Assembly (NCBI GenBank): GCA_037833965.1
Contig: AP031359.1
Location: forward strand, 1,546,001-1,610,000
Direction: 5' to 3'
DNA: 64,000 bases
Source: Marchantia polymorpha subsp. ruderalis
Taxonomy: Eukaryota; Streptophyta; Marchantiopsida; Marchantiales; Marchantiaceae
Below the pieces are notes generated by a model. That model had not been told where the DNA came from. It worked only from the letters and a program-made list of their open reading frames with translations, and did not search any database. The position numbers were made by a program, and so were the translations under genes. Of the stretch, positions 35,400-64,000 are shown piece by piece. Numbering within the stretch: the stretch's first letter is position 1; each line of letters opens with the position of its first letter.

Positions 35400-36470
35400 A
35401 GTCTGATTTGAAGAAAAAGAAACAAAAAAAAAGGAGAAAAAGAAGAGTGAGGGGTTCAGAATTATAAGAACCTCATCTGAAGAGACCAAAAATTTGCATC
35501 CGGTCTCACCTACTATAGTTGTGAGATTTGAAGTGGAGTAGCTAGGGTTTAGTTACATTTTCTGCTCCAACTCATAATATAAGGTGGAGGATTGACTGTA
35601 CAAAAGAAGACGAAGTTCCAATTGTTGAGGAATTGATGGCCATCTCATTGCTAGATGTGTGAGAGAAGAAGACAGGAAGCAGGTTGAGTGGGTGAAATTC
35701 TGCGCTACATGTGAAGTTGGAGGCAGAAGTTGATAGCGGGCGATGGAGATCGAATTGGGATCGCGATGCAATGCGATGTCCGATGTGTGTTGTTTTGTTT
35801 TGTTTTGTGCTATGTTTCTTTTAGACTAGAGAGTTGTTGCTAGCTGTTTGCTTGTGTTTGGATACTCTCCAATGTTGCTTCTTGGTGCGCGTCCGTGTAG
35901 GAATGACGTTGATTTTTGGAGTAGTTTTACTTCAGTATGCTGTCGAGAGCACGGTTGGACTTGATCACTGGCCGGCCTATCAATGTTTCTCTCACGGTGA
36001 GACTTGAATGATGATCAGTAGACCGTGAAAGTCTTCTTACGGAGATGACAAGTTAGATTGCCCATACCCCTTAGCTAGTAAAGCTAGAGTAGCTTAGTAC
36101 GGCACGACATTAGATGCGGACAGGGTTATTGGGTGGAAATCTCGCGGTGGTGCCACTTGAGTTTTTGTCATCACAGAGCAATTTTGTGGTCTTGTTGAGG
36201 ACCGCGGTGGATTTACGCGGAGTGGGTTGAAGTATCGGCTACCTTCACCTATCTTGCCATTTGTTGCGGCGGAGTACTAGGTGATTGCGGACACAGAATC
36301 TTTGGTGCTGATAACGTCCAGTGTTCCAACCCGATTGATGTGGAACATGGATGGGATGTACAGAGCCGTGAAGGCCCTCGATGTTACTCTGGTGCAGTGG
36401 GCACCATCGAGCTCGATGATTTTATTCAGTAGGTCGACACGTGGTGTGATATGCAATTTCTGCTAACCCC
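35400..36470 (+). other. PHD-gypsy leader region
   Basis: 35400-35850 matches the reverse copy at 63400-64000 (shared words AACATAGCACA..., TCTGAAGAGA). TATAAATCAAAGC at 35369 is TATA-like. The remainder to gag has no conserved frame I recognise. Confidence 0.45.
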
Positions 36471-37420: not shown

Positions 37421-38199
37421 CCTTCATCCGGAGTTGAGATCTGGAGGTAGAGGTCGTGGCGGTGATGCTCCACGAGGCCGAGGTCGTCGAGGTGGCAGAG
37501 GCGGTAGGGGTGATAGAGTTACCGGTGCCATTGAGCGTACTGTAACTAGTGGTACTTCTGCCATAGAGAGCGCTATGGCAGTTCAAATTGAGCATTTGGA
37601 GTAGAGGCTTGCTACTATGATTCGTCTTGGAGCGAGCACTTCCACATCTTACGAGGTAGAGGATTTTTCCTATTTGGCAAGTGCAGCACAAGCGGAGGCA
37701 TCAGTTGTAGTGACCAAAGGTGGTGCTCACGGTTCAGAGCCACGTGGTGCGACTGTGGAGTTGGACCCTTAGAGGGGTGAGGATGGACGTCAGGCCAGAC
37801 TTCCCCAGTCCTTTTTGTTTCGGAGGTGAGCAGGAGTTCATCTATGTGACCTGTACCACCTAGTGACACTCGAGGTAAAATAGAGATTCTTACATCATCT
37901 GTTGTGAACGCGGACGTGCCATCCGGTGTAGTGATACGAATGGCCACTTCAGTGCTGAGATCTCCATTGTTTTCAGCTACGGAGCTGATGGACTCTGGTA
38001 TTGATTTGGCTCGAGTATTTTGGGAGGCAGCCATGTCGTATGAGCGTGGGACAGTCACTGCTACGAGTGCCAAGATATGTGCGGATACAGTTGAGGAGCC
38101 ATCCTCAACGTCTACATTGATTGAGGAGACGTCTCGGCAGGCGGTAGTGGCAAGGATAGAGTCCTTACCAGCTTGACCAGCCATTGATCGTGAGAGGAT

Positions 38200-38650
38200 T
38201 GTCCCTGGTGTGTGTATGGTGGACAACCGGAGTGGCTTATTTTGCTTGGTGAGTTCTACTAGTCAGGTGTATGTCACAGCCAGAGTTTTGCTGGATTCTG
38301 GTGCACAATCCTTGATGTTGAGCAAGGCTGCATGCATTAGTTTGGGTATCCGGAGGTCAGAGTTGGAACCTTTCCCATTCCAGATCTAGACATCAATCGG
38401 TGGCGCCAGCGATAGGTCTTACTTTATGACCAGGGAGAGCATAGCGGTGCAGTTGAGGCATGATCATGCTCATGATAGCTCGCAATTTGAAGTTTGTGCG
38501 GTGGTTACATCAGCAGAGTTTTATGATGTGCTTGTTGATGGAGCTGTGTTATATCCGATGGGTTTTTGGATGGACTATTGGAAAGAGACTGCTGCCTATC
38601 GTCCTGGTTGGCAGTCTGGCGATAGACGTCTGAGCGATAGCTGCCGGTGA
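38200..38650 (+). pseudogene. PHD-gypsy aspartic protease region
   Basis: TARVLLDSGAQSLMLSKAAC at about 38275-38335 is the retropepsin active-site segment with DSGA intact. The C-terminal part follows in the frame 38426-38650 (FEVCAVVTSAEFYDVLVDGA, YPMGFWMDYW). A stop and a shift lie between. It matches the reverse copy at 59597-59843 and 63321-63395. Confidence 0.72.
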
Positions 38651-38859
38651 GATTTATTTCTCAAGATCGACCTCTTGGATCTTCATCTGCGGTCTTGGCA
38701 TCCGTTGCGGGCTTTAGCGGAGTGCTTACTTGGCCTGATGACTTATTGGAGGGGAACATATTTGTCGACGATACCTTAGTCTAAGAGAATGTGGAGGAGG
38801 TTGTGAGCTTCGCAGCGGCGATGTCTTCACCCTTAGATGTTACACTTTGGAGTTCTTGT

Positions 38860-40215
38860 TAGGCACTACAGCTGGCGGCTGATAGGTTGGTGAAGAAGGC
38901 TTGGAATGAAGCCTCTTTACCAGTAGAGGCAGAGACGGCTTCAAGTGATTGGCAAGTTGGTGGTCCTAGCGCACTGTCCTCATTGGATACTACACCCATT
39001 GCGTGGGAGTATTCCTCGCACGGTGTTTGTGTGTTGGATCTTTTTGGTGGGATCAGCACAGGTTTGGCTGTAGTGTTGCAGTCAGGTATTCTCGTACGGA
39101 GATACTTGTATGTGGAGAAGTACGAGACTGCACGTTGAGTCTCTTCACAACATGTTGCACAGTTGATGCGGCGTTTTCCTTTGTTATTGCCGCGATCAGT
39201 TGTTCGAGGATACCAGAAGGCATTGCCTTCAGACATTTCGTTGCTAGAGGGCGCCGGACCTTGACCGCGCTGGCCATATTGATATGGTGATTGCGAGCTG
39301 GCGATGTCAGGAACACACATGTGCTGGACATGGAACAGGGTTGCATGACCCCAGATCTCGGATGTTTTGGGAGATGATGCGAGTTACGCCATCTCCAAGT
39401 GCAGCAGACACGTTCTCTAGCATACATTCTAGAGAACGTATCATTGTTGGGTGACACTCGTGCTCAATTGATGGCAAGTGTCCATCAGGTCCGAGCATGG
39501 ATTGGATCAGCAGTACTGTTGGATGCTGCGAGGGTTGGATCACGTGCTCATCGTCCACGTTTATGATGGACTAACCTTTTGTCACGAGAGATATTGCGTC
39601 ATGCCTATGATTCTGTGCAATGTGATCCTACACTCACCATTGACAGTATCTTGGATGTTTCCCGACACTCTCAGGTAGTGAGAGTGGCTGACAGATCATC
39701 TAAGGCGTCGGTGAACCGCGTAGGTCAGCCTCGGATGGCTTTACCCACGTTGGTTAGTTATCTAGCATCACATGCATATCGTGATGATGAACATGGGCTA
39801 CTCTCGGATTCTGCAGTACATCAGTTGGTGGAGCCCAACGCTGACGAGAGAGAGCGTGCGATAGGGTCTATGAGTGGTGTGACCGCAACATCTTCAGTTT
39901 TAGAGGCTTTGCGTCATTAGGTTTTGGATCAAGCTATGGACTTGAATTGCTTGACGTGGATTGTGAGCTTGGGTTTGGCTAAGCAACGCCGTTTGCGAGT
40001 TGATTTGATTGTTAGTACACCACTTGTTAGCTCATTGCTTACTGGGACGGTAGTGGCAATGGCTAGGGGGGCGATAGGCAAGATATTCGTCATCCTTGGA
40101 GTTCATGGGATGTGACAAGAGGACTTGCTAGAGTTCCAGCCCATGTAGTTGGAGAGGTTTCTCATGCGGAGGTTGCTACGAAGAAGGATACAGAGACCCT
40201 TTCTTTGGACGATGT
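38860..40215 (+). pseudogene. C5-cytosine DNA methyltransferase-like region of PHD-gypsy (+)
   Basis: Motifs of the C5-methyltransferase fold occur in order. Motif I: VCVLDLFGGISTGLAVVLQS (39025-39085), the SAM-binding FxGxxTG loop, followed by VEKYETAR. Motif IV: HIDMVIASWRCQ, with the nucleophile-position Cys codon at 39305-39307, then LHDPRSRMF-like sequence. Motif VI: YILENV (39423-39440). Motif VIII: SRAHRPRL-WTNL (39540-39575). Motifs IX-X: VSYLASHAYR, EPNADERERAIG and DQAMDLNCLTWIV (39735-39985). The layout and the SRAHRxR word are closest, from memory, to DNMT3/DRM enzymes. A stop at 39136 and shifts to 39579 inactivate this copy. It lies between protease and RT. Confidence 0.75.
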
Positions 40216-40453
40216 GGCGTAGCAACCAATGACAGTATCGCCTTCCTCTAGTGTGACTATGGAGGAATGGAAGCCATTGATTGGTTCCCAGATCACAGGA
40301 GGAGAGAGGCGACAGTAGACACAATTTCTACGAGATCATAGGAATTCTTTTGCTTTTAGTATGAAAGAGTTGGGTGCTTTGATTGGACCCGGTATACGGA
40401 TAGAATTAGCTAGTGATACGCCAATCTTCCATCATCCTTATTAATATAATGAG

Positions 40454-41299
40454 ATGGAGAGGACTTTGATTCAGAGTAGGACTTTGGACCTACTTGAGGC
40501 GGGATTAGTGGAGTTATCGCATGGTGAGTATGCGTTAGCCACTGTCATGCCGATGAAAAAGAATGTACATGGCAACTACACGGATAGGCGCATGTGTGGA
40601 GACTACCGTCCTATCAATCAACATACGAAGTCCGATAAGTATGTCATGCCTACACCTGAGGAGATCTTCGATGTGGTGGGGCATGCGAGGATTTTTAGTA
40701 CTTTGGACCTTTGGGCAAGATACCATCAGTTGCCAATTTGGAAGGAGTACAAGGCCAAGATAGTGTTTTGAGGCATCGACTTCCACGGCAAGGATTGTTT
40801 GTATCAGTGGCGATTCTTACCCTTTGGGTTGCAAAATGCACCTGCCGAGTTCCAGAGAGTGATTTACAGGATCCTAGCGGGGCTAGATTTTGTCAGATGT
40901 TACATTGATGATATCTTGGTGTTTAGCGACACGGTGGAGCAACACCAAATACATTTGCAGATTGTGCTTGAGCGGTTGAGGGCTCATGGTTTGCGTTTAC
41001 ATCTTGGGAAGTGTAAGTTCTTCCACGAGAAGGTTGAGTACTTGAGTCATGTGATCTATCCAGGTGGTTTAGAAATTCAGCAAGCAAAGGTGGAGGCTAT
41101 TGCACGCATCTCTTGTCCCACGGATGTGAGTAGAGTTCGTGCATTCATGGATTTGGCGAACTACTATCGGAGGTATGTGAAGGGATTAAGTGCTATAGCC
41201 AAGCCTTTGAACCTTTTGCTAAAGTCAGATAAGGAGTGGCAATGGGGAGATGAGCAGAAGAGAGCTTTTGTTGAGCTGAAGGCTAGGTTGGTGAGCTGA
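40454..41299 (+). pseudogene. PHD-gypsy reverse transcriptase
   Basis: One phase from 40454 to 41299 with a single stop at 40769-40771. Signatures: ARIFSTLDLWARYHQLPIWK, YQWRFLPFGLQNAPAEFQRV and CYIDDILVFSDTVEQHQIHL with intact YIDD, then KCKFFHEKVEYLSHVI and FMDLANYYRRYVKGLS. This is a standard Ty3/gypsy RT. A 20-bp tandem duplication at 41272-41311 adds a stop at the RNase H junction. Confidence 0.85.
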
Positions 41300-41311
41300 A
41301 GGCTAGGTTGG
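41272..41311. repeat. 20-bp tandem duplication at the RT/RNase H junction
   Basis: TGAGCTGAAGGCTAGGTTGG occurs at 41272-41291 and again at 41292-41311. The duplication shifts phase and introduces a stop, so it is a damaging slip event. Confidence 0.95.
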
Positions 41312-41676
41312 TGGCCGCTCCCATCTTGAGGAGACCTATTAGAGGTCGTCCGTACCAGTTGCACACTGATTGGAGTATGTTGGAACTTGGAGCGGTGTTG
41401 ACGCATTGTGATGATGAGAGCAAAGAGTTTGTGGTTGCGTATGCTAGTCGTTCGAACAATGCAGCGGAGTCGAGTTATAGTTCGTACAAAGTAGAGTGTT
41501 TGGCAACTATGTGGGTTGTGGCACACTTCAGGTGTTACTTGTTTGGTACGCAGTTTAACCTTGTCGCTAATCATCAACCGCTCAAGTGGTTGATGGAGTC
41601 CGACAAGCTCATAGGGAAGCTTGCACGGTGGGCTCCCATCTTACAGGAGTACGACTTTCAGGTGATGACTAGATGA
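41308..41676 (+). pseudogene. PHD-gypsy RNase H
   Basis: Frame contains PYQLHTDWSMLELGAVLTHC, VVAYASRSNNAAESSYSSYK, ECLATMWVVAHFRCYLFGTQ and NHQPLKWLMESDKLIGKLAR. These are the RNase H signatures (Asp of HTDWS, Glu of YKVE) of gypsy pol. The frame ends by stop after VMTR, where DFQVMTR-GDDFQV sequence has been partly duplicated. Confidence 0.8.
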
Positions 41677-42079
41677 CTTTCAGGTGACCAGGAGTTGCAA
41701 ACCTAGATGCCGATGGTTTGAGTCAGAACCCATGCACTAGCCAAAAGGACGACCTTGAAGCTAGATGGCATGGTGAGGTTGACGAGGAGTTGGTGCCTGG
41801 TTGGCATGCATCTGCCTTCATGTGCTGGTTACATGGAGACTCTAGCAGGGAGGACCACCTGACATCTTACTCTAGTCAGAGAGTGGATGCCAATCTTTAG
41901 ATCCTTAGGTTGAGGATCGTGGTATAGATCAGCGTGATGTTCACGATGATACCTTGGTGTTGGATTTCCTACGGACCAATATGGTGCTAGGCATAGTGGG
42001 TGCCAAGGAGCAAAATTGTGTTCTCCAACGCGCGAAGAGATATCGATTGGAGGGATCACATGTTCTTTGAGTGTGGAAG

Positions 42080-42785
42080 GACGGAAGGGTAGGAGTAGTA
42101 CCGCATCTAGCTCAGAGAGCGCGCATCGTGCGACATGCTCATGAGGAGTTGGGACATTTTGGAATGAAGCGTACGTACAGCTTACTCCTTGGACAATATT
42201 GATGGCGTGGTATGCATACTCAAGTACAACAGTTGGTATCACGTTGCATGGTTTGTGATCGGGTGACAGCATCGTTAAATGCTCTAACACCAAAGTTACA
42301 TCTATTATCCATCACCTGTTGCTGGACCATTACCTTTGACTGTACGACATCATCGGTACGTGTTGGTGATGGTGGAGCATTTCTCTAAGTGGATTGAGTT
42401 GGTGGCATTACCTGACAAGGCAAGTAAGGGAGTAGCGTATGCTTTTCTTGACAGAGTGCTTAGTCACTATGGCGCACCAACAGAAGTGTTGACCGATCAG
42501 GGAACAGAGTTTCAGGATGAGTTTCAGGTCTTGTGTGACAATGCGCTGATTAATCATTGGACCACGTCGCGAGATCATTCCGAGGCGGATGGTTTGGCTA
42601 CAGACGGTGAAGAGGGCGTTGCGCAAGTATGGCCTACAAAAGGGGCATCTTGGAGATTGGAATATTTTGTTACCATGGTTGGCCATGGGATATCGATTCA
42701 GTCGTCAAGCATCCTTGGCTTGCTTCTCATCATAATTTCTATTGTACGGCCGAGATCCAGACCTGCCGACATCAATTCGTTGTGA
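42080..42785 (+). pseudogene. PHD-gypsy integrase core
   Basis: An H-H-C-C zinc region is visible at 42120-42260 (HAHEELGHFGMKRTYSLL; SRCMVCDRV). The core frame 42336-42785 begins HHRYVLVMVEHFSKWIELVA and keeps VLTDQGTEFQDEFQVLCD. The first Asp segment (DFAGPLP in the reverse copy) is destroyed here, and the frame shifts after EADGLA, so the catalytic Glu is lost. Confidence 0.78.
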
Positions 42786-42935
42786 GTCTAGTGAGGTGGT
42801 GAACCTTGATGACCCGAACATGTGGGTGAGAGTATGTTTTCAACGTGCAGAGCTCTTTCAGAGAGTTATGCATGCGGCGTTTGAGAATCTTGCGATTGCT
42901 CAACATAGAGATACATTGCGATACGCAACAATTCA

Positions 42936-43349
42936 TTGAGGAGGTTATCAACCATCGATTGTAGATTCCATGTGGGAGACTACGTCTATCTACAGCATAC
43001 TGCACTGACGACATTGGATGTGACGGCGGAACGCACAATCTTGCGAGTGCGGGATGTGTTATCTTCTGGAGTTCTTCTATTGGAGGGTCGTGACGGAGTC
43101 GTTTGGAAGGATCATGTGCGCAATTGTGCGTCATGCCAGCTCCCAAACATAGAAGGAACTATGGACCCAATCTTAGCAATAGTACGTGCTGGCTTGAGGT
43201 GCATGCTGTGTGGGCCAACTGGTCAGGCGGCCCGTATGTTGGTGTGTGATAGGTGTTATAGAGGATGGCACATGTCGTGCTTGACTCCCCCTATTGATGT
43301 TATTCCGATTGAACAATGGGTTTGTCCTCTATGTACTTCAAAGGGATAG
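42936..43349 (+). pseudogene. Integrase C-terminal domain fused to a PHD finger
   Basis: An open 137-codon frame. Residues 9-60 are the integrase C-terminal SH3-like domain (FHVGDYVYLQHTALTTLDV; RVRDVLSSGVLLLEGRDG). Residues 88-135 form a PHD zinc finger with a complete C4-H-C3 ligand set: CMLC, CDRC, YRGWH, C of MSCLTPP, and the final CPLC pair. PHD fingers commonly read histone H3 tails, so in an integrase tail it could direct insertion to particular chromatin. The frame is open but separated from the integrase core by shifts. Confidence 0.82.
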
Positions 43350-43462
43350 ATGACTTGATCTTCACATGTTATGAATTGCAGATTGGCGACTAACGATGGG
43401 GCGACATAACAGCCGGCCTACTAGTTTGCACATCCACGAAAGTGTATAGCATGTAGTTATAG

Positions 43463-43467
43463 ATAGA
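43463..43467. repeat. Target-site duplication ATAGA of A4 (other copy ATAGG 48497-48501)
   Basis: Four of five bases agree. The uninterrupted site in the reverse copy reads GTAGATAGGGCTACC, which shows where A4 entered the PHD-gypsy 3' region. Confidence 0.75.
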
Positions 43468-44584
43468 TGTAATAACCCATCAAAGGCTAAAACTGCAATA
43501 TAGTGGTAGAAAGGTCGAACCCACAAGGACAGAGGCAACACACAAGGTACAAAGTGTCACATTTAACAGACTATTGAAGAGTTTGAATTCTCAGGCGACT
43601 GTCACTCCCAGAAATACCGCAAGTGTTCACTCGGAGATCACTCGGAGGTCGCACAGTGCAGTGTAGTTCACTCAACACACACACACACACACACATACAC
43701 ACCTGAAACTATAAAAAAACACAACTCAGAGGTCGGTTAGGAACTCTACTTAAGATTTCAGGGGAGAAGTCTCTCGCGAATACACTCAGCGAATCTACGG
43801 GTAGTTACTCCCAACTCCGGCTTTTACAACCCTTCCACTAGTTTCTGCTAGCACAGAGAACCCGGATTGGACTTCCTACTTTGGATCGAAGTCACTCACA
43901 CGCGGTGAACAACACACTCAACTCACAAAATGCGCAGAGAACACAGGTCCGAACTGAGAGACTCAACTGAGAAACGATCCAGTAGCACACCATAACAGTC
44001 TATTGAAGAGTTTGAATTCTTATGCACTTGTCATTCCCAGAAATACTACAGGGGTTACCCTGAAGGCACCTGCTGCAGCGTAACCTGAATTACAACCAAG
44101 GTTTACTCGAAGTAACAAAACTTCACTTTGGCATTCAGGGGAAAAATCCCGAAGGAGTACAATCAGGAACAATCACTCGAAGGTGTAGGGACGAACTGTT
44201 CAAGTATCTAACTAGTTACTAGCTCTAAGCATCGGCAATCACCCGCAGGTGTAGATCCGAACTACTCAAGTCTCTAACCAGTACACTAGCTCTTAACATT
44301 GGGCCGAAGGCCTTAAGCTACAAAATGCGGATCGCCAAGTTGTAGCTCTTCTTGCGCGGTGATAGAACTAACGACACTAACACGTAGAGAAAATGAGTTC
44401 CTGATCCGTACTTCCGAAACTGGAAGAATCCCAAGGCAAGACGCCTTGAACTACTTTATACCTTCTAAGTCCTAACTAACACTACACTACACTACACTAC
44501 ACACCTGTACGGAACCACGCTACGCTACACTCTGCAGATCCCGTGCTTCGCCTTCTGCGCGCCGGACTGCCGCGCACTAACTCC

Positions 44585-47146
44585 CTACCCGCCCAGTCTT
44601 CCGCTCGACTGCGCAGTCCCAGCCGCCACAACCTCCGCCTCGAGGGTGGCCATGGCGTCCCGCGACCTTGACAGAAACGAATCTAACTTCTTTGCTACTC
44701 GCCGCCGGCTCCAACTGTCACCTAACACCAACCCCGCGGCACGAAACTCTAACTCGCGCAGTGTGAGTTTCTCATGCGCCGCCACTTCCCAGTGGGTGTA
44801 ACCTCTGAGGCATTGGTTGACTCGCCTCGCCAACTCCTCTTTCGTGCGATCTGCCTCCCGCCGGCGATCGTCTTCAACTACCACTAATTGCAACTCTGCG
44901 TCCGCACGCTGCGCTCTCAATTCCCCGCACTCTGATTGCAGTTTGCGGATTAACTCTTCATCCGCCTGACGTGCGAGCTGACACTGCTCCAGCAACCGTG
45001 TCTGCCGCACGAGCTCCTCTGACAAAATTTGATTCTAAGTTTGCTCAGAATCCAGCTCATCAGCGAGCTTCGCTCTATCCTTGACGAACTCCTTCATCGC
45101 CTCTTCAAGTTTCTCATCGCGCAACTTGTCGACGGCCTGGTGCATCTTCCGCGTAAGAGCAATGTGGCCCAGCAGGCGCTCATTCTTCTCCCGCAGATCT
45201 TTAATGTCCCCATCCAGACGTGCCAACAACTTGCTGGTGCGAACTTTAGTGCGAGTCCGCCTACGCACTAACTCGACGTAGGACCCAGGCTGGCGGGGGT
45301 CTGCATACTTCGTCACCTTGCGATCAAGATACCTCAACAGAGGTACCACCTGCTCGCAGAGTGCCGCCGTCGGCGTGCCTGCCACCGATTGCTCCTCCTC
45401 CTCACCCGATCCCGATTCCGTTTCTCCTTCTTCGTCATCCTCCGAATTGAGGATTTTGGTCGCCACTAAATTCTCTGGCGATTCTCGTGAGTGGGGCCTC
45501 GTAGTGTCTGCTTCGTAGTCTGCCGCTGTTGCCGCTGCTGCCTCACTACTTCCGGCCAGAATGTCTAAGGCGGTGGGGGATTTTGGCTGTGCCAAACTCG
45601 CACCGCTCGCCCGTCCGGCTTCTACCAACTCCTCATTGCCGAAGACGTCCACCGCCGAAGGCGTTCGTGCGGAAGGTGTTTGTGCGGATTGCAATTGTGC
45701 GGAGCGCACACGTGTTTTTCCCTTCTAACTGTCATTCCGCTCCTCCGTTAGGTCCTGCTCCTTCGATAGGCCCTACTCCAAAGGTGCCTCCGCCGAAGGC
45801 GCATTTGTTGGCGGCGCTTCCGCCGAAGGCGGCTCGCTTGAAGTCCCTTGGCCCAAAGGCCCTTGAGCCAAAGATGCACCTTCCGGCGGACTAACCGCCG
45901 AAGGCTTCCTACTCGCAACTCCTTGGCCCGAAGGCCCTTGCGCCGAAGGCGGATCTTCCGCCGGCTCCTTTCCCTTCCTCCGCTGCGCCGAAGGCGCTCA
46001 AGCCGAAGGCCCAAGCCCCGAAAGCGAGTCCGCGTACGGTGCTCGTGCGGAACTCCTGTTCGTTGCCGGCACATTTATCGGTGCCGCGTGTCGTCACTCT
46101 TGACCCGAAGGCCGTCTTGCTTCCGCCGAAGGCGTCCGTGCCTTCGGCGTAAGGAGGTCCGCTGACCCCTCTGCCGTCCGCGTGTTCCCATCCTCCTCCG
46201 AGGATGGTGTCTCCTTCTCTCCGGCGGCACTTCCTGTCTCCGCGCTACTTGCAGGCAATACGAGCCTGCGTGCTTTCTGCTTCGGCCGACTGCAGAGCTC
46301 CTCCAGTGGCCGCTTCCGTTTGAGAGCAACCAAATCTCAATGTTGACCCTTCTCTGCTTCTCCCTTCCATCTCCGCTTCCGCGGCACTCGCGTTGCGGAT
46401 GTTTCCCTTCCCGTACTCTGTTGGGCTGGTGGCGTGGAGGCAGGAGTCCCTTCCTCGTCGGTGTCGATCTCAACATCCTTCACATACCTCCCGAGATTGC
46501 TGAGTGATAGCAGTGGAAATTGAACACGCTCGGTCGCGGTTAGGCAACCCATCGACCGATAAAAGTTGATCAAGAAGGGGGAGAGTTGATTGATCGATCC
46601 CCCCTTCTCCTCAAACGCATGCTGCCGCGTTATCTTCCATAAGATGTGCGCCCAGTGAATCGGAGCTCCAACCAACGCCAGCTCCACAAAAGACACTTGC
46701 CAAGAAGTGATGTATGTGGTCCTGTGCGGCTGCAAGAGTTGGAGAAGTGCTACCGCGACATTTTTGCGGTAGCGATCCTTGTAGTCTCGGGTCCTGTACC
46801 CGTTCTTGCTGGACTTTGCACTCTTGAACAGGGTCGCGAAGGAAATATCCTCCTCCTTCGTAACCTTGATGCTCTCGCTATCAAATATGAGATATCCGTC
46901 CTCTCCCGCACATCTTCCCAGTACCTGTGCCCAATCTTGGACGGTCCAACTCTCTACGTGCGGTCGAAATCCGCGCGTAGGTTGGTGTCTCTCCTTCTGC
47001 CATTCGCGCACCATGTCCTGGCACACGTAATTCCATCCCCACATGAGGAAATTGAGCTTCACCGCAGACACCTGGATCTGGAAAGCGCGCAGCCCAATCT
47101 GCGGAATCTTCAGCGGAATCATCCGCAGCTGAGTGGCCTTCGACAT
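44585..47146 (-). pseudogene. A-type protein, long but frameshifted
   Basis: Start MSKATQLRMIPLKIPQIGLR at 47146. The first frame continues to 46337 without a stop and holds the whole N-terminal domain (GEDGYLIFDSESIKV, RDYKDRYRKNVAVALLQLLQ, SWQVSFVELALVGAPIHWAH, FLINFYRSMGCLTATE) plus KDVEIDTDEEG. After a stop, 46333-46094 gives LKRKRPLEELCSRPKQKARR, then the PSA-rich middle in shifted frames, 45709-45035 (TALDILAGSSEAAAATAAD, PLLRYLDRKVTKYADPRQPG) and 45025-44585 (coiled coil to LDSFLSRSRDAMATLEAEV). Intact length would be near 850 residues. Confidence 0.78.
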
Positions 47147-47539
47147 TGCGTTTTTGAAATCGGATTTCGCAAACTCTCCTCCGCTATGCCCAAGCTTCTT
47201 GCCCGCGGCTGCGATTCCTCTGCAAACTCTAATCTCTCTCAATTCCTGCGGTCGCGCACTCAATTCTCCCCCTGCTATGCAAGTCTCTGCGTGTCGCCTT
47301 CTCGAATTTCTCTCAGCCAGAATGTGTGCGCGCGCAGCTCTCACAAGAAATCAAAATCGCAAATTCAAGAATGAGTCATCCGCCCTTGGCTCACAAGATT
47401 TCATTGTCGACACTTGGTCGTGAGTGACGACTCGCTTGATGGCTTGGAGGCGTAACGGCCCTCCTCTCGCACGCACGGCTTCACGCTCCGCTGTCGAAAA
47501 TTCAATTTGATTTCCGCCATCGTACTTCGCCACGGCCGT

Positions 47540-48300
47540 GTTTGCGCAACGCTGAAGGCGGATCGCCGAAGGCGCGACGGCGAAGGCTTTCGCCTCTAGC
47601 CGACTCGCAACTTGTAGCTATCCCGCACCGCCGAAGGCATTCCGCCACAAGCATTCCGCCAAAGGCAAACTCCTTCTGCCGAAGGCATTGACCCGCAGCG
47701 CCGAAGGCGAACATCTACCGCCAAAGGCGTTGACTCCCAGCGCCGAAGGCAAACTTCTTGGAGACGTTCGTCGATGTAGGTGCATCGCCGAAGGCGCAGC
47801 ACCAAAGGCGGCTGTGCCGAACGCGTTGACCGTAGTCAACGGATCTTGTCTTGTCTGTCAATCCCTCTTGTCCCTCCAAAGGCGCTTTTGCCGCCGGAGC
47901 TCTGTTCCGCTGAAGGCGCACATGTCCGTACCGCCGAGGGCGTTGGGCCAAAGGCGGACCGTACGGAGTTGCTACCTCCGAAGGCACTTACCTAATCTTG
48001 ATGCGTTGGCGCCAAAGGCGCCGTACAAAGAAATTCACCCCCGAAGGCAGCTCGTCCGTCGACCTAGCCCTTCCGCCGAAGGCGTCCGTCTACGTATCTT
48101 TCGATAATCATAACTTCTTGAGTCCTTATCCGTTCCAAGCGTTCTTAGGCTTGTTAGAACAAGCGTGTTGAGTCCTTTCCAACGAAACCCTAATCAAGTC
48201 AAGGCGTTGTGAATTGAATAAGTTCTGAGGGATTTCTCTAGCCCCGAAGGCGTCTCGCCGAAGGCGGATTATGCGCCTTGCGCCGAAGGAGATCTCCTTC
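47540..48300. repeat. GCCGAAGGC cluster in the A4 leader
   Basis: Numerous GCCGAAGGCG words (reverse complement of CGCCTTCGGC) at irregular spacing, with CCGAAGGC, CCAAAGGC and CTGAAGGC variants. A second cluster lies in the coding middle (45640-46170), where it encodes the SAEG/PSA-type repeats. Confidence 0.8.
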
Positions 48301-48548
48301 AGAATTGCTCGTTCAGGTCGGAGCGCCTGTTCCGGACATTGCGCCCAACTCCTGGATTCTACGAGATCATACGAGATCCACAATTATCCATCTTCACTCT
48401 ATTTAAATGTACCGATTAGCATTTACGTGGCTACTGCGGTACTATTTTCCAAAAATGTTTTAATTTCCGCACAAAAACAAAAAATGGGTTACCACAATAG
48501 GGCTACCTGGGAGTCAGAGGGACCTTACTGCCAGCTAGGGGGGCAAGT

Positions 48549-49047
48549 TGTGATACATTTGATCAAGTACGCTCTGGCGCCTTATATGTGTGTATGTGTG
48601 CGTATGCGTATGTGAGTAGCATGTCAGCGATGTGAAATGTATGACGAAATATATTTGCACGACAGCTGTCATGTAACTCGGTATTTACTAAAATTAGCAG
48701 TTGGCCTAGGGTTCACTTCTGAGGTTTATAGTGTCGACGGCAACTCGAAGAACGTCAGTTCTTCGAGTCAAGCCTGTTAGCGTTGGAAGTTGTGCATCTG
48801 CCTGTAAGCGTCAATCTAGAATCTCTTTGGAGTCGGTTGGGCTCAACTTATGTTTGTGACGGTTTTAGTGCCACTGGGGTAATTGAAACTAACGGGTTTT
48901 CCAGAGGGAAAAACCACATATTTTCAGTTGTGATCAATTTCAGTGTGTACATTCTCGCGTCTTATTTGTGTGTACATATGCGTATGCGTATGTGAGTAGC
49001 ATGTGAGCGATGTAGAATGTATGATAATATATATTCGCACGACAGCA
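48549..49047 (+). repeat. LTR-like 3' end of PHD-gypsy (+), with internal sub-repeat
   Basis: It follows a purine tract (CTAGGGGGGCAAG) and begins TGTGATACATTTG. Two similar blocks, 48584-48675 and 48960-49047, share GCGTATGTGAGTAGCATGT and TTGCACGACAG-like words. The reverse copy has the same pair of blocks (51063-50945 and 50700-50586). It stops where D-type sequence begins. Confidence 0.6.
48743..48768 (+). promoter_or_regulatory. Conserved stem-loop in the PHD-gypsy LTR
   Basis: ACTCGAAGAAC and GTTCTTCGAGT form an 11-bp stem with a GTCA loop. The reverse copy at about 50815-50845 keeps a similar but imperfect stem (CTTGAAGAACT-GTCA-ACTCTTCGAG on its own strand). Confidence 0.6.
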
Positions 49048-50585: not shown

Positions 50586-51063
50586 GACAAACGTTGTGCG
50601 ACTCGGTATTGCCATACATCATACATCGCTGACATGCTCTATTCACAACTCACACATACATACATAAGGAACGAGAGTGTACACACACAAAGGTATCACA
50701 ACTAAAATCATAACATAACACAAAAGGTACAAGAGTCGAGCCAAACTCACTACACTCCGGTAGAATAAGAGTCGAAGCTAATGGGAAGAATCCCGACGCC
50801 TACGGCTCAACTCGAAGAGTTGACAGTTCTTCAAGCTCGCTTTCAATATAACCTGAAAAGTGTCGACTCAATCTAACTCGCGTCTCAACGTTAACCGACC
50901 CTACAACATGCCTCCGACTCAAATCTAAACTCAACGTGCACACACATGACAGCTGTCGTGCGACTCAGTATCGCCATACATCATACATTGGTGACATGCT
51001 CTACTCACAATTCACACATACATACATAAGGAACGAGAGTGTACACACACAAAGGTATCACAA
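50586..51063 (-). repeat. LTR-like 3' end of PHD-gypsy (-)
   Basis: On the minus strand it begins TTGTGATACCTTTGTGTG after the purine tract CTAGGGGGGCG. It contains two blocks with ACTCTCGTTCCTTATGTATG about 365 bp apart, the same sub-repeat arrangement as in the plus copy. Confidence 0.6.
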
Positions 51064-51224
51064 CTCGCCCCCCTAGCTTGCGGTCAGGTCCCTCTTACTC
51101 CCAGGTAGCCCTATCTACAACTACATGCTATGCACCTTCATGGGTGCGCGAACCAATAGGCCGGGTGCTATGTTGCCCCATCGCTAGTCGCCTATCTACA
51201 ATTCATAACATGTGAAGATCAAGT

Positions 51225-51660
51225 CATCTAACCCTCTTAAGTACATCGAGGACAAATCCATTGTCCAGTAGGAACAACATCGATAAATGGAGTCAGGCAC
51301 AACATGTGCCATCCCCTAGAACACCTATCACACACCAACATGTTGGCCGCCTAATCAGCTGACCCACATAACATGCACCTCAAGCCGGCATGTACAATCG
51401 CTAGGCTTGGGTCCATAGTACCATCCACGTTTGGAAGGTGGCATGGCGCACAGTTGCGCACATGATCCTTCCAAACGACACCGTCACGACCCTTCGACAT
51501 GAGCACTCCAGAAGGTAACACCTCTCACACTCGCAAGATAGTGCGTCATGTTGTCACATCCAACGTAGTCGGTGCAGTCTGTTGAAAATAGACGTGGTCT
51601 CCCACACGGAATCTACGAATCGATGGTCGATAACCTCCTCCTCAAATAGTTGCATACCGC
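51225..51660 (-). pseudogene. Integrase C-terminal domain and PHD finger, degenerate
   Basis: Minus-strand frames read FCVGDHVYFQQ-like integrase tail and, at 51400-51235, GLRCMLCGSAD-AANMLVCDR, GWHMLCLTPFIDVVP and WICPRC. All eight PHD zinc ligands (C4HC3) remain although a stop replaces one residue after CGSAD. Presence in both copies shows that the finger is an element domain. Confidence 0.72.
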
Positions 51661-51674
51661 AACGTATCTTTGTG

Positions 51675-52832
51675 CTAAGCAATCGCAAGGTTCTCAAAGG
51701 CTACAGGCATAACTCTCCGAAAGAGCACTGCACGTTGAGAACACACTCTCACCCACAAATCTGGATTATCAAGGTTCATCACCTTGCTAGACTCACAACA
51801 AATTGCTGCAGGCAAGTCGGGATCTCGGCCGTACAATAGAAAATTTGGTGAGAACGAAGCCAAGGATGCTTGACGATTAAATAGATATTCCATGGCTAGC
51901 CATGGTAACTTAATATCCCAGTCTCCAAGATGCCACTTCTTTAGGCCATACTTGCGCAACGCTCTCTTCACCGTTTGGACAACACGCTCAGCCAAGCCAT
52001 CCGCCTCTTGATGATCTTGAGACGTGGTCTGGTGATCAATCAACATCTTGTCACACAAGACCTGAAACTCACCCTGAAACTCTATCCCTTGATCGGTCAA
52101 CAGCTCAGCTAGTGCACCAAAGTGACTAAGCACCCTGTCAAGGAAAGCATATGCTACTCCCTCACTCGCCTTGTCAGGTAATGCCACCAACTCAATCCAC
52201 TTGGAGAAATGCTCCACCATCATCAACACATACCGATGATGTCGTGAAGTCAAAGGTAGTGGTCCAGCAAAGTCCAAACTCCGATGGTAACCCAATCCCA
52301 TGATAGGTAAGGGATGTAACTCTGGTGTCGGGGCATTGAACGATGCTCTCACTCGATCACAAACCATGCAACGTGATACCAACTGCTGTACTTGCGTATG
52401 CATACCACGCCACCAATACTAACCAAGGAGTAAGCTGTATGTACGCTTCACTCCAAAATGTCCCAACTCCTCATGAGCATGCCTCACAATGCGTGCTCTC
52501 TGAGCTGGATGTGGTACTACTCGTACCCTACCGTTCTCCCACACTTGGAGAACATGTGATTCCTCCAATCGGTATCTCTTTGCCCGTTGGAGAACATGAT
52601 CTCGCTCCTTGGCACCCATAGTGCCTGGCACCATGCTGGTCCGTAGGAGCTTCAACACCAATGCATCATCGTGAACATCACGCTGATCCACACCACCATC
52701 CTCAACCTCAAGATCTGAAGATTGACCATCTAATCTTTGATTAGAGTAAAATGTCAAATGATCCTCTCTGCTGGAGTTTCCACGTAACCAACACATGAAG
52801 GCAAATGCATGCCAACTAGTAAGCCTTGGCAA
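51675..52832 (-). pseudogene. PHD-gypsy integrase, mostly open
   Basis: Frame 52832-52419 (137 residues) ends with the zinc-region half HAHEELGHFGVKRTYSLLLG; after a stop, frame 52403-51675 (242 residues) continues with QLVSRCMVCDRV, then the catalytic core: SLDFAGPLP, LLTDQGIEFQGEFQVLCDKM and EADGLAERVVQTVKRALRKY. The D, D and E catalytic residues are all visible. Integrase inserts element DNA into chromosomes. One stop within the zinc domain is the only break seen. Confidence 0.82.
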
Positions 52833-52965: not shown

Positions 52966-53155
52966 TTTAAAAAGTTTTAGTTTTGGACGCATCATATAAA
53001 GATTCTCCTGGGGGTCTGCGGGTTTTGGTTTTCTTTGGATGCATTAGAAATTGTGTTAACCGTTGCCTCTCTCCTCCGGTGATCTGAGAACCAATCGATG
53101 GCTCCCACTCCTCCTCCATGGATACACAAGAGAGAGGCAACACTGTCAATGATTG

Positions 53156-54214
53156 CTACGCTACATCCTCCAAAGAAGGGTTCTTCGTACCCTCCTTCGT
53201 AGCCATCTCCACATGAGAATTATCTCCAACTGCATGGGCTGCAACTCTAACAAGTCCCTCCGTCACGTCCCATGAACACCAAGGATGACGAATATTTCGC
53301 ATGTTGCCCCTAGCCATTGTCAACACCGTCCCGATAGGCAATGAGCTAACAAGTGGTGAAACAACCACCAAATCAACGCGCAAACGGCGTTGCTCGGCCA
53401 AGCCCAAGCTCACAATCCATGTCAAGCAGTTAAGGTCCATAGCCTGACCCAAAACCTGACGACGCGACGTCTCTGAAATTGAAGAAGCCGCAGTCACACC
53501 AGTCATAAATCCCATCGCACGCTCTCTCTCATTGGCGTTGGGCTCCACCAACTGATGTACGGTACTGTCCCACACTAGTCCAGGTCCATCATCACGATAT
53601 GCATGTGATGCCGGATAACTAACTAACGTAAGTAAAGCCATCTGAGGTTGACCTACGCGGTTCACCAACGCCATAGATGACCTGTTAGCAACTCTCACCA
53701 CCTGAGAGTATCGAGAGACATCCAAGATCTTGTCACCGTTGAGTGTAGGATCGCGATGCACAAAATCATACGCATGACGCAATATCTCTTGTGGCACAAG
53801 GTTGGTCCACCATAAACATGCACGATAAGCACGTGAACCAACCCTCGCAGCATCCAACAACAGTGCTGATCCAATCCATGCCCTAACCTCATGGACACTC
53901 GCCATCAACTTAGCCCGAGTGTCACCCAACCATGGTACATTCTCTAGAATGTATCTGGAGAACTTGTCTGCTGCTCTTGGAGATGACGTAACACTCGTAG
54001 CATCTCCCAAAAACATCCGAGATCTGGGGTCATGCAACCCTCCTCCATGCCTAGCGCGTGTGTGCCCCTGAAATGGCAATCCCGCAATCACCAAATCGAT
54101 ATGTCCAACTCGATCAAGGTCTGACGCCCCCAACAATGAAATGTATGAAGGCAACGCCTTCGGATATCCTCGAACAGCTGATCGCGGCAACAACAAAGGA
54201 AAACGCTGCATCAA
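53156..54214 (-). pseudogene. DNA methyltransferase-like frame of PHD-gypsy (-)
   Basis: A 352-codon open frame, the longest in this copy. Residues 38-66: HIDLVIAGLPFQ, then GGLHDPRSRMF, methyltransferase motif IV with Phe (codon 54073-54071) in place of the catalytic Cys. Residues about 85-95: YILENVPWLG, motif VI. Residues about 125-140: RVGSRAYRACLWWTNL, motif VIII. Residues 190-275: LVSYPASHAYRDDG, PNANERERAMGFMTGV and VLGQAMDLNCLTWIVSLGLA, motifs IX and X. Motif I lies upstream in broken sequence (54310-54370). Enzymes of this fold transfer a methyl group from SAM to cytosine; this copy should be inactive without the Cys. The residues after about 290 have no recognised domain. Confidence 0.78.
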
Positions 54215-54710
54215 CTGTGTAAATTAGGTCGTGAAGAAACTTGACGTGCAGTCTCGTCCTTCTCCACGATACAAGTATCTACGTACAAGAATACTTGACT
54301 GCAACATTGCAACGAAACCCGTGCTAATCCAAAAAGATCCAGCAAACAAACACCCTTTGGGGAATACTCCCATACGATATGTGTAGTAACTAATGGTGAT
54401 AGCGTGCTAGGACCACATACTAGCCGACCACCTTAGACTCGCTCTGCCTCTGCTGGTAAAGAGGCCTCACTCCAAGCCTTCTTCACTTACCTATCAGCCT
54501 CCTGCTATAATGCGTGGCAAGAACTCCAAAGTGGAACATCCAAAGATGATGACACTACCGCTGCGAAGCTCACCATCTCCTCCACCTCCTCATAGACTGG
54601 AGTATCCTCGGCTGACCTGTTCTCCTCCAACAAGTCATCAGGCCATTTAAGCACTCCACTTGAACCTGCAACGGAGGCTAAAACTGCAGGAGAAGATCCC
54701 AGAGGTCAAT
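54215..54710 (-). pseudogene. Motif I remnant and protease-methyltransferase linker
   Basis: Minus-strand sequence corresponding to plus-copy 38690-39140. KGVCLLDLFG is followed by a small deletion that removes part of the SAM-binding loop and shifts the frame; VEKDETARQVSS follows. Sequence toward 54700 matches the region upstream of motif I. It ends at TCAAT, the A1 target. Confidence 0.65.
54706..54710. repeat. Target-site duplication TCAAT of A1 (other copy 59597-59601)
   Basis: Exact 5-bp match on either side of 54711-59596. Joining the flanks restores PHD-gypsy sequence as seen at 38650-38680 in the plus copy. Confidence 0.9.
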
Positions 54711-54800
54711 TGTGGTAACACACTTTTTGTTTTTTTTGCAGAATTTAAACAATTTTAGAAAACAAGTACCGAAGCAGTGTCTATAGTTAGAAAAGGTTAC

Positions 54801-54810
54801 GATAAATAGA
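54801..54810 (+). promoter_or_regulatory. TATA-like box of A1
   Basis: GATAAATAGAGTGG lies 90 bp from the 5' terminus, the same place as in A2 and A4. Confidence 0.5.
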
Positions 54811-62800: not shown

Positions 62801-63320
62801 CAGTTCACTCAGCTCGCGTTTGAAGTGTCTCAATTCCTTGTAAGGCACCTTCAATGGAACCAATTTCCTCACCTTCTCACTCTTCTTGGGCGCCATGTCC
62901 TCAATTTGCGTTTCGCTACTCGCGAGTTGGATCGATTTCGCTTCCTCTCTCTCTCGCTCGTTCTTGCTCGATATCGCAATGTCGGCGCGAAGTCTCCTCG
63001 TACTGCCTTTACCTTCGAAGCCCTAACATTGCCTCCTCTCGCGCCCAGTAGAACTCCCGACGCGTGCGAACATCGTCCGGCCCGTTGCGTGATTTGAAAT
63101 TGATTCCAATGTCTTCGCCGAAGACGTAGCTCTTCGTACGTCCATAAAAGGCTGCGCCGAAGACACGAAGATCCAAAGATCTTTGGACGTAGACAAATTT
63201 TAACTAATTCTATCATTTCTTCTCAGGGGCTGCTCATTCTAACTCTAACAACTACTTCCTAAACAAATATCTTTCAGTTTTGTTGATTTTTAAAGAAAAA
63301 CAAAAAAACTATGCACCACA
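59844..63320 (-). mobile_element. B-type element B1 (3477 bp)
   Basis: Left end TGTAATGACAGACAAATACC and right end AAACTATGCACCACA are the B termini in reverse. Layout as B2: leader (63320-62897), coding region, AATAAA with stem (60343-60378), tail. An in-frame deletion of 54 bp in the N-terminal domain (near 62511) removes the ALGIMHILRPAH segment present in B2. Confidence 0.83.
60377..62896 (-). pseudogene. B-type protein, several breaks
   Basis: Start MAPKKSEKVRKLVPLKVPYK at 62896. Visible parts: LRLDFLLWNWNCVSASICKE, WTKVMGPCTGSDGDLIF, stop; then SGRQGTNGWKTVDYEDPTYV joined directly to AAWQVGFF by a deletion, stop; FLVNFYRETGLLTREEEKRF; stop; then 62203-61784 (RARPKKRANRRMVTTE, SDSSVEKTVAPIVNTNEVAA); 61835-61365 (TFPEFLQDSVVPLLKYLDGK, NRTKLKRAVAVKREWN); 61319-60843 coiled coil; 60706-60377 (CLNGFAMWGLESVKWLKLDL to EIPELPL). 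At least three stops and three shifts. Confidence 0.75.
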
Positions 63321-64000
63321 TCATGTAAGACCTATTGTTGGTGCCACCGAGTGATGTATGAATCTGGAACGGACAAGGCTCCAACTCGGACCTCCGAACT
63401 CCCAACAGCTAGCAACGACTCTCCAACTGAAATGAAACATAGCACAGAACAACACAACACACTGGACATCGCCTCGCATCGCGACCCCGAGTCAAACTCC
63501 ATCGCCTTCTATCTCCTGCCTCCAGCGCCGGCAACGCTATCTCGTCCATCCCGTCACAAAGATGATATCCGCGCCGAGTTGTCTCGTACTTCACCTCATA
63601 ACTCCACTTCACACTGTAACTAGGGACAAAGAACATAAAGAAAGCCTATATACCTAACAGTTTTCCATAGGAAAAGTAATAATGATAAATCCATATTTTC
63701 ACAACCAAGAAACCATAATAAGTGAGACGAGTGCAAGTTCTCAATCTCTTCTGAATACTACTATTCTCTCTTCTTATATAATTTTTTTTATATCCTTCTT
63801 TTTCTTTAATTTTAAGAAAGAGAATAATTCTTTTACAAGAAAGCTTACATTATACGCTCTCCAAAACTGTGCAAAGTGGCTAAACTTAATTCTCAACTTC
63901 CTATTTCGTCGACTCCCTAACTAAACTGCTCCGAGAACAGGAGCAAGCCTTGCAACTTTGGATATATTGCTGCATCTAACAAGAAACTGAAAGCTAGCAC
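63321..64000 (-). other. PHD-gypsy (-) protease fragment joined to leader
   Basis: 63321-63395 matches the plus copy around the protease (38345-38425 in reverse). From about 63396 the sequence instead matches 35400-35850 in reverse, so gag and zinc knuckles have been deleted. The AT-rich part to 64000 is leader or LTR and holds no frame. Confidence 0.6.

What the first reader, a model, noticed from the sequence alone, without database searches (positions are those of the whole stretch)
38860..40215. A Ty3/gypsy retroelement with a C5-cytosine methyltransferase between protease and RT
In order, the region shows a SAM-binding motif I (LDLFGGISTG), motif IV with a Cys, ENV, a motif VIII-like SRAHRPR and a motif IX-X region (ERERAIG, QAMDLNCLTW). 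The same region lies at the same place in the second, inverted copy. Retroelement-borne cytosine methyltransferases have been reported in dinoflagellates and charophyte algae (de Mendoza and colleagues); a land-plant gypsy with one would be new to me. An element that could methylate its own DNA might hide by adopting host silencing, or bias its survival over rivals.
Basis: partly seen in the sequence, partly recalled or inferred. Interest (0 to 1): 0.92.

Follow-up and report, generated by a model that had tools for sequence, protein, structure and literature searches.

The report
DNA-methylating jumping genes in a liverwort
A liverwort genome carries many copies of a retrotransposon that encodes its own DNA-methylating enzyme, and selection has kept that enzyme as intact as the element's copying enzyme, so a mobile element of land plants may be using the very chemical mark that plants use to silence such elements.

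Summary
Window 39013-39992 (+) and 54363-53384 (-) are two decayed copies of a DNMT3-type cytosine methyltransferase inside Ty3/Gypsy elements of a liverwort (probably Marchantia polymorpha). Copy 2's open frame does not reach PF00145, but the family does: 123 scored PF00145 matches in the genome, 25 in open frames of at least 1324 aa. Sequence and predicted fold match DNMT3A/3B best. On branches along which the element was still copying, DNMT changes show omega 0.21, like RT (0.23); after insertion 0.73 and 0.96.

The 10.9-kb element reads Gag-PR-DNMT, a conserved readthrough-type stop (UAG CAR YYA), then RT-RNaseH-integrase-PHD finger. Its repeats are split (A1...B1-A2-B2), with TGTC...GACA ends and 4-bp target duplications. 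Relatives occur in other liverworts, Sphagnum, green algae and environmental contigs.

The kind is known: KnitGypsy-Dnmt3 of Klebsormidium (PMC5890265) has Gypsy domains, a Dnmt3 and split repeats. I found no report in land plants, nor of the PHD or the leaky stop, in the open-access papers searched. Self-methylation of cDNA is the best explanation but is inferred; no activity was tested.

The parts
35719..36244 (+). copy 1: remnant of the 5' leader (between repeat A1 and gag)
   Evidence: blastn 77% to leader of L031/L039
36370..37820 (+). copy 1: gag with CCHC zinc knuckles, frame broken
   Evidence: tblastn to P0113, 6 stops in the main piece
37766..39012 (+). copy 1: aspartic protease (LDSGAQ) and conserved linker, broken
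   Evidence: tblastn to P0113
39013..39992 (+). copy 1: DNMT3-type C5-cytosine methyltransferase domain, in three frame pieces with 3 stops
   Evidence: tblastn to P0113 DNMT, E 3e-53 and 1e-100
39993..40219 (+). copy 1: C-terminal tail of the Gag-PR-DNMT frame
   Evidence: tblastn
40220..40228 (+). copy 1: conserved stop and context TAG CAA CCA between DNMT and RT (readthrough type UAG CAR YYA)
   Evidence: sequence; conserved across copies
40223..41888 (+). copy 1: reverse transcriptase and RNase H
   Evidence: Pfam RVT_1 4e-22; tblastn
41891..42960 (+). copy 1: integrase (H2C2, rve)
   Evidence: Pfam rve 1.5e-11; tblastn
43200..43334 (+). [quoted passage not shown]
   Evidence: Pfam PF00628 9e-10
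43350..43466 (+). copy 1: 3' untranslated stretch, cut off by a nested insertion
   Evidence: blastn 91% to tail of L031
43467..48496 (.). nested insertion of another element in copy 1 (tail positions 114-117 present on both sides)
   Evidence: coordinates of tail matches
48497..49046 (+). copy 1: end of the element, split repeats B1 (48546-48666), A2, B2 (48926-49046)
63404..63789 (-). copy 2: remnant of the 5' leader
   Evidence: blastn 81-91%
63319..63414 (-). copy 2: short protease remnant
   Evidence: tblastn 75% over 32 aa
59600..59863 (-). copy 2: part of protease and linker, between nested insertions
   Evidence: tblastn 80%
54364..54705 (-). copy 2: linker before the DNMT
   Evidence: tblastn 87%
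53384..54363 (-). copy 2: DNMT domain; catalytic Cys changed (PFQ), N-terminal part out of frame
   Evidence: tblastn E 6e-154
53150..53158 (-). copy 2: conserved stop and context TAG CAA TCA
   Evidence: sequence
51231..52823 (-). copy 2: after RNase H to integrase and PHD; most of RT/RNase H deleted
   Evidence: tblastn to residues 514-1044 of the L031 frame, 7 stops
50593..51065 (-). copy 2: split repeats B1 (51065-50954), A2, B2 (50703-50593)

Best explanation
It is a family of Ty3/Gypsy-type retrotransposons that carries a DNMT3-type cytosine-5 DNA methyltransferase as a working part. The element makes a Gag-protease-DNMT polyprotein; ribosomes stop at a conserved UAG CAR YYA after the DNMT and now and then read through it to add RT-RNaseH-integrase-PHD. 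So the methyltransferase is probably made at Gag level and packed into the particle, where it methylates the new cDNA, probably at CG. The PHD finger on the integrase reads a histone tail and helps choose the landing site. A new copy thus arrives already carrying the host's silencing mark: it escapes sensing or attack as foreign DNA and enters quietly, which harms the host less and favours long persistence. Shown: the domains, their order, selection on the DNMT, the conserved stop, the repeat structure and the target duplications. Inferred: readthrough, packaging, enzymatic activity, CG preference, PHD ligand and the benefit.
For: DNMT3 type: PDB phmmer best DNMT3A 6e-12; profile of 41 relatives: DNMT3A 1e-19, best plant-type chain 4onj ('DNA methyltransferase', a DRM by recall) 1.2e-10, DRM2 1.6e-7. 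AlphaFold model pLDDT 79.8, pTM 0.84; the 50 best folds listed are all DNMT3 entries, E 5e-18 to 2e-15, TM 0.56-0.61 by query and up to 0.81 by target length. Catalytic Cys in 61 of 65 retroelement DNMTs aligned (2 gaps, 1 Y, 1 F), Glu of ENV in 64 of 65. Selection: internal-branch omega DNMT 0.21 (bootstrap 0.16-0.29), RT 0.23 (0.14-0.35); terminal 0.73 and 0.96. Stop after DNMT: 31 of 31 distinct copies (29 TAG, 2 TAA; 28 followed by CAR YYA; 26 with both TAG and CAR YYA), and TAG CAA CCA in 12 of the 13 loci with a readable tail among 18 searched. Calypogeia proteins P0008 and P0122 end at about the matching place. [quoted passage not shown] PHD finger: Pfam 1.2e-10 in L031; best solved relatives include CHD4, PHF12, DPF2/3, PHF21A and KDM5B. 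Integrase use: exact 4-bp target duplications in 8 of 9 elements. CG methylation by a related retroelement DNMT is shown only for SymbioDIRS, in yeast (PMC5890265, parts 1-4 of 7 read).
Against: No enzyme assay, methylome, ribosome profile or expression data were available. In the same paper the Klebsormidium gypsy DNMT gave no methylation in yeast (called inconclusive there). The 13th codon of the RT frame is ATG, so re-initiation is possible instead of readthrough. Copies are richest in C-to-T changes at CHG and CG alike (0.043 and 0.035 against 0.018 at CHH), which fits host methylation and says nothing about the element's own enzyme. Retroelements without a DNMT occur too (for example an RT at window 26564-25308, while the DNMT query matched only the two copies in the window), so a DNMT is not needed for transposition as such.
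Confidence: 0.55

Rival explanations
1. The DNMT acts mainly in trans: it methylates host genes or rival transposons and shifts the host methylome in the element's favour.
For: Many copies with long open frames (25 of 123 scored matches with at least 1324 aa); Gag-level production would give plenty of enzyme if readthrough is as inferred.
Against: Nothing here shows enzyme outside the particle; methylation in vegetative Marchantia is described as low (PMC9516144, passages); [quoted passage not shown]
Confidence: 0.12
2. The domain methylates the element's RNA, or binds nucleic acid without methylating DNA (a chaperone or tethering role).
For: It sits in the same frame as Gag and its zinc knuckles; RNA methylation was proposed for the dinoflagellate LINE DNMTs (PMC5890265).
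Against: Best matches are DNMT3A/3B, with the tRNA enzyme DNMT2 far below; catalytic Cys and Glu are kept in nearly all relatives aligned, not expected for a pure binder.
Confidence: 0.15
3. Self-restraint: the element methylates itself to lower its own rate of copying and spare the host.
For: Selection on the DNMT equals that on RT; raised by de Mendoza and colleagues.
Against: Selection among copies within a genome is not expected to favour restraint (general reasoning); cannot be told apart from stealth with sequence data.
Confidence: 0.13
4. A decayed passenger of no use to the element.
For: Both window copies are broken.
Against: Internal-branch omega 0.21, none of 20000 simulations with as few nonsynonymous changes; the same motifs are kept in liverwort, moss, algal and environmental relatives.
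Confidence: 0.03

Closest known systems
KnitGypsy-Dnmt3 of the charophyte Klebsormidium nitens (de Mendoza et al. 2018, PMC5890265)
   Same: Gypsy domains, Dnmt3-type domain without the DRM rearrangement inside the polyprotein, intronless, split repeats like DIRS, purifying selection (Ka/Ks < 0.2 there; 0.21 on internal branches here).
   Different: Host is a land plant; DNMT lies before a conserved UAG; integrase has a PHD finger (the word PHD is absent from that paper's main text; figures and supplements were not seen, so these may be shared). No Klebsormidium sequence was returned, so direct relationship was not tested, and its copy number was not seen.
SymbioDIRS-Dnmt3 and SymbioLINE-Dnmt of dinoflagellates (same paper)
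   Same: Retroelements with a cytosine DNMT; the DIRS ones have split repeats and a Dnmt3 domain.
   Different: Tyrosine recombinase (DIRS) or LINE endonuclease instead of a DDE integrase; other element classes.
Chromoviruses (Ty3/Gypsy with a chromodomain on the integrase)
   Same: A histone-reading module at the integrase C-terminus, RT-RH-IN order.
   Different: PHD finger in place of the chromodomain; extra DNMT; no ordinary LTRs.
DIRS and PAT-like elements (split direct repeats; partly recalled)
   Same: Repeat order A1-coding-B1-A2-B2.
   Different: rve integrase and 4-bp target duplications instead of a tyrosine recombinase.
Orchid Gypsy elements with an m6A demethylase domain (PMC9289625, passages)
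   Same: A plant Gypsy lineage that took up a nucleic-acid-modifying enzyme.
   Different: Separate ORF, opposite chemistry, RNA target.

Membership tests
C5-cytosine methyltransferase, DNMT3 type | Significant match to PF00145 | tested here: met
   Window copy 2 frame alone: no hit. Genomic copy and relatives over cut-off: P0112 36 bits, P0113 36, P0002 43, cut-off 22; P0107 under it (19.4), and P0105, P0088 and P0041 no hit at E <= 0.01; 123 matches in the genome
C5-cytosine methyltransferase, DNMT3 type | Catalytic Cys (PC), ENV, RxR-like motif VIII, motifs IX and X in unrearranged order | tested here: met
   both window copies have lost parts
C5-cytosine methyltransferase, DNMT3 type | Methylates cytosine in DNA | not testable with these tools
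   needs an assay
DRM methyltransferase | Circularly permuted motif order | tested here: not met
   Order I-IV-VI-VIII-IX-X; DRM2 and 4onj chains match only over the motif I-IV part
Ty3/Gypsy retrotransposon | RT-RNaseH-integrase order with Gypsy-type domains | tested here: met
   Pfam in L031: RVT_1 121-279, RNase H 342-471, H2C2 619-673, rve 692-785; no RT tree was made
Ty3/Gypsy retrotransposon | Paired long terminal repeats | tested here: not met
   Repeats are split: A1 only at the 5' end, B1-A2-B2 at the 3' end
Ty3/Gypsy retrotransposon | Short target-site duplication made by a DDE integrase | tested here: met
   4 bp exact in 8 of 9 elements, one mismatch in the ninth
KnitGypsy-Dnmt3 | Gypsy domains with Dnmt3 and DIRS-like repeats | tested here: met
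   definition from PMC5890265 text and Fig. 4 legend
KnitGypsy-Dnmt3 | Same clade in a DNMT or RT tree | tested here: inconclusive
   no Klebsormidium sequence obtained
DIRS | Tyrosine recombinase, no target duplication | tested here: not met
   rve integrase, target duplications
Chromovirus | Chromodomain at the integrase C-terminus | tested here: not met
   PHD finger instead; no chromodomain hit at E <= 0.01

The most novel reading that the evidence does not exclude
An old group of the green lineage, from prasinophyte to moss and liverwort, of split-repeat integrase elements that are a complete portable 'reader and writer' of chromatin: a PHD finger on the integrase picks the target, a DNMT3 made at Gag level writes methylation on the cDNA in the particle, and the element inserts itself already marked as silent. 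The DNMT moved within, or was taken up twice by, the group (PR-DNMT-RT and RNaseH-DNMT-IN).
Probability: 0.35. Interest if true: 0.88.

Novelty: new variant of a known kind. Interest (0 to 1): 0.74.

Why it matters
Plants silence transposons by cytosine methylation; an element that brings the enzyme with it turns that picture round. Marchantia is haploid, small-genomed and easy to transform (general knowledge), so the question 'why would a transposon methylate DNA?' could be tested in a model land plant. It also bears on how Marchantia methyltransferase counts are read: a 2018 methylome paper lists five DNA methyltransferases (PMC5784723, passages), while the genome gives 123 scored PF00145 matches; of the 20 fetched, 18 belong to the element. 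[quoted passage not shown]

Tried and rejected
Rejected: chance motifs. Rejected: a DRM or a recent retrocopy of the host gene; the host's DNMT3-like gene (L057) lies in two frames with a gap that looks like an intron, shares 31% identity with the element's domain over 134 aa and sits on a very long branch (with a long-branch warning). Rejected: pseudogene without function. Rejected: the stop inside the protease of L031 and copy 1 as a second programmed stop; of the 29 distinct copies aligned there, only L003 (the same copy as L031) and copy 1 have it, the other 27 read CAG or CAA.

Not done: a tree of the RT domain against Gypsy elements without DNMT; CpG depletion against matched elements (only a crude value: CpG observed/expected 0.72, 0.69 and 0.75 in three copies against 0.91 in the rest of the window). 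One paper looked at for PHD fingers in transposons (PMC10799480, passages) was not to the point.

Limits: copies were chosen by similarity to the window's DNMT or by the PF00145 profile, which favours copies with a well-kept DNMT; this may lower the terminal omega of the DNMT (0.73 against 0.96 for RT) but should not create the low internal value. Parsimony counts on FastTree trees ignore recombination between copies. Genomic counts are lower bounds by the tool's own statement. For one search, 175 of the proteins held matched the domain profile, 71 covered more than 85% of it, and I left out 6 of these 71 (P0112, P0054, P0088, P0152, P0159, P0127: the read-through copy and gene models with internal losses or ends missing); short fragments were labelled Gag-PR-DNMT by default. 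Literature: open-access PMC only, ten searches, of which I saw the listed top of each (12 to 20 papers where more matched).

Corrected on checking: a first look at L040 started at a wrong place and seemed to lack the priming site; one search shows that it has it.

Full report
What was checked. The window is G000:C1:1546001-1610000 of a 241-Mb genome in 9 contigs. Its elements match annotated Marchantia polymorpha genes (P0113 = Mp_4g09160, 99% identical over the DNMT region of genomic copy L031), so the host is a liverwort, most likely M. polymorpha or a close relative. Copy 1 (+) has the DNMT at 39013-39992 in three frame pieces with 3 stops; copy 2 (-) at 54363-53384 has lost the catalytic Cys. 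Copy 2's frame alone gives no Pfam hit, so the window would not have convinced a domain scan.

The family. Thirty genomic copies were fetched by similarity to copy 2 (40 scored of 419 candidates). Of these 30, 28 align with relative P0002 as one ungapped stretch (26 over all 368 residues) and 2 in pieces; 15 of the 28 have no stop. A PF00145 search of the genome scored 123 of 290 candidates, all over the cut-off, 25 with an open frame of at least 1324 aa (my count). Of the 20 loci fetched there, 18 (L059-L076) are the element's DNMT at 87-96% identity; L057 is a host DNMT3-like gene (best PDB match DNMT3B 1e-12, bacterial HhaI 2e-10); L058 did not match the element. Homologs: 111 proteins at E <= 1e-3 and 59 in a search among longer proteins. 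Those named by their sources are from Marchantia polymorpha, M. paleacea, Riccia sorocarpa, Calypogeia fissa, Sphagnum troendelagicum, S. jensenii, S. fallax, Closterium, Cymbomonas tetramitiformis and, a record labelled Mesvir1 (Mesostigma viride by my reading); most of the rest are unnamed.

What the domain is. The best solved relatives by sequence are DNMT3A and 3B (6e-12 for one sequence; 1e-19 with a profile of 41); plant DRM chains (1.2e-10 and 1.6e-7) and bacterial enzymes follow far behind. A model of one genomic copy (pLDDT 79.8, pTM 0.84; 53 residues under 50, mostly 12-26 and 267-303) matches DNMT3A and 3B structures best. Motif order is that of DNMT3, not of DRM. In the alignment of 65 retroelement DNMTs the catalytic Cys is kept in 61 (2 gaps, 1 Tyr, 1 Phe), Glu of motif VI in 64, and the two Arg of motif VIII in 62 each.

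Anatomy of the element, from genomic copy L031 with its upstream stretch L039, 10,910 nt in all. One frame (in L031 with private stops) codes for Gag with zinc knuckles, protease, a conserved linker and the DNMT. After a stop, the next frame (1045 aa) codes for RT, RNase H, integrase and a PHD finger. The stop is conserved: 31 of 31 distinct copies (29 TAG, 2 TAA), followed by CAR YYA in 28; 26 have both TAG and CAR YYA. Among 18 further loci, 13 have a readable tail and 12 of these have TAG CAA CCA. Two Calypogeia proteins end at about the same place. CAR-YYA is the readthrough signal of tobacco mosaic virus (PMC2194720, passages). Hence the inference that DNMT is made with Gag, and RT and integrase by readthrough. 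Against: the 13th codon of the RT frame is ATG, and re-initiation is not excluded.

Ends. The 3' end is a block B1-A2-B2 (B 112 nt, A about 290 nt); A1 stands alone at the 5' end. In L031/L039 A1 and A2 agree over 288 of 288 nt and B1 and B2 over 112 of 112, so this insertion is recent. A search with A alone found 12 same-strand pairs among its 40 main matches, 10 of them 9.6-12.6 kb apart (my count). In 9 of these 12 I read both ends: they start TGTC and end GACA, and 8 of 9 have an exact 4-bp target duplication (one of them a run of T); the ninth has one mismatch. The inner B1-A2 junction reads GACA-GC-TGTC, that is, the two ends of the element joined with two extra bases, as if an end-to-end joined circle had left its copy. 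Just after A1 stands ACTCGAAGAACT (one base different in L041), complementary to AGTTCTTCGAGT inside A, in 4 of 4 copies looked at, including L040, whose A is only 75% alike. The two pair in the predicted fold of one copy (z -3.1). This suggests self-priming as known for Tf1 (recalled, not from a call). How such an element is reverse-transcribed into its integrated form is not explained.

Selection. With 48 loci given and 43 usable for the DNMT, changes on internal branches are 59 nonsynonymous to 119 synonymous against 124 nonsynonymous expected from the same mutation types: omega 0.21 (0.16-0.29). RT (37 usable, 210 codons) 0.23 (0.14-0.35); protease linker (42 usable) 0.31 (0.22-0.42). Terminal branches: 0.73, 0.96, 0.95 (first version with 30 loci: internal 0.22, 0.27, 0.38). 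The DNMT is held as tightly as RT while the element copies, and is relaxed afterwards.

Relatives. Two architectures appear. In one the DNMT lies between protease and RT: the bryophyte elements, environmental Gag-PR-DNMT proteins, and P0151 and P0165 with RT in the same frame. In the other it lies between RNase H and integrase with a PHD finger at the end (P0156, P0158, P0167, P0172). Against the other labelled rows the second group (12 rows) is one side of a branch (support 95/91; 100% of 200 bootstrap trees). Rooted on the host gene it is drawn as two clades and not one, unlabelled P0168 falls among them, and long branches make details unsure. The PHD finger occurs with both architectures (P0165 and the liverwort element in the first), so the pairing looks old.

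What it does. Purifying selection, an intact catalytic set and DNMT3 likeness argue for methylation of DNA. The DNA that the element handles in its particle is its own cDNA, hence self-methylation as the best explanation; this idea was put forward for the dinoflagellate DIRS elements (PMC5890265). The steps from readthrough to packaging, activity and benefit are inferred. The C-to-T excess at CG and CHG sites of the copies (0.035 and 0.043 against 0.018 at CHH) fits host-type methylation acting on them.

Known and new. The kind, a Gypsy element with Dnmt3 and DIRS-like repeats, was described in Klebsormidium (PMC5890265, parts 1-4 of 7 read). That paper's main text has no mention of Marchantia, liverworts or PHD. 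Sarre et al. 2025 (PMC12344493, passages) refer to streptophytes and dinoflagellates. Neumann et al. 2019, a survey of plant LTR elements (PMC6317226, passages), has neither Marchantia nor PHD in its main text. A liverwort genome paper (PMC9985172, passages) has neither 'methyltransferase' nor 'Dnmt' in its main text, and the passages seen of a Marchantia review (PMC9516144) and a Marchantia methylome paper (PMC5784723) do not mention DNMT-bearing elements. Searches bearing on DNMT elements in land plants; on PHD fingers in Gypsy elements: 39, 98; on split repeats: 43; on stop suppression: 61. Subscription papers, preprints and supplements were not searched, so the claim is only that I did not find it. 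I therefore file it as a new variant of a known kind.

Noticed in passing
window 43467-48496 and about 54706-59599: Two nested insertions of about 5 kb interrupt the element copies; they carry long ORFs that look like coiled coils by eye (for example 56734-58635 +, 633 aa; 46337-47350 -, 337 aa). Three of them gave no Pfam hit, and ORFs that look alike recur at about 9.6-11, 14-16, 30-31 and 60-62 kb. An undescribed transposon family?
   Followed up: partly
L057 (G000:C6:12459429): A host DNMT3-like gene, apparently with an intron, that is not among the classes (MET, CMT, DRM) of the five DNA methyltransferases listed for M. polymorpha in PMC5784723.
   Followed up: partly
L031 8663-9176 (counted on the reverse strand), L039: Split repeats with integrase-type target duplications: an element that mixes Gypsy enzymes with DIRS-like ends, with the inner junction equal to its own joined ends plus GC.
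   Followed up: partly
L039, L040, L041, L042, about 290 nt after the element start: A possible self-priming site complementary to a stretch inside repeat A.
   Followed up: partly
P0156, P0158, P0167, P0172, P0174: Environmental Gypsy-type polyproteins with the DNMT between RNase H and integrase (P0174 starts after RNase H) and a PHD finger; host unknown.
   Followed up: partly
G000:C5:31853090-31861144: A copy with three A repeats (an extra unit at the 3' end), possibly from a circular intermediate.
   Followed up: no
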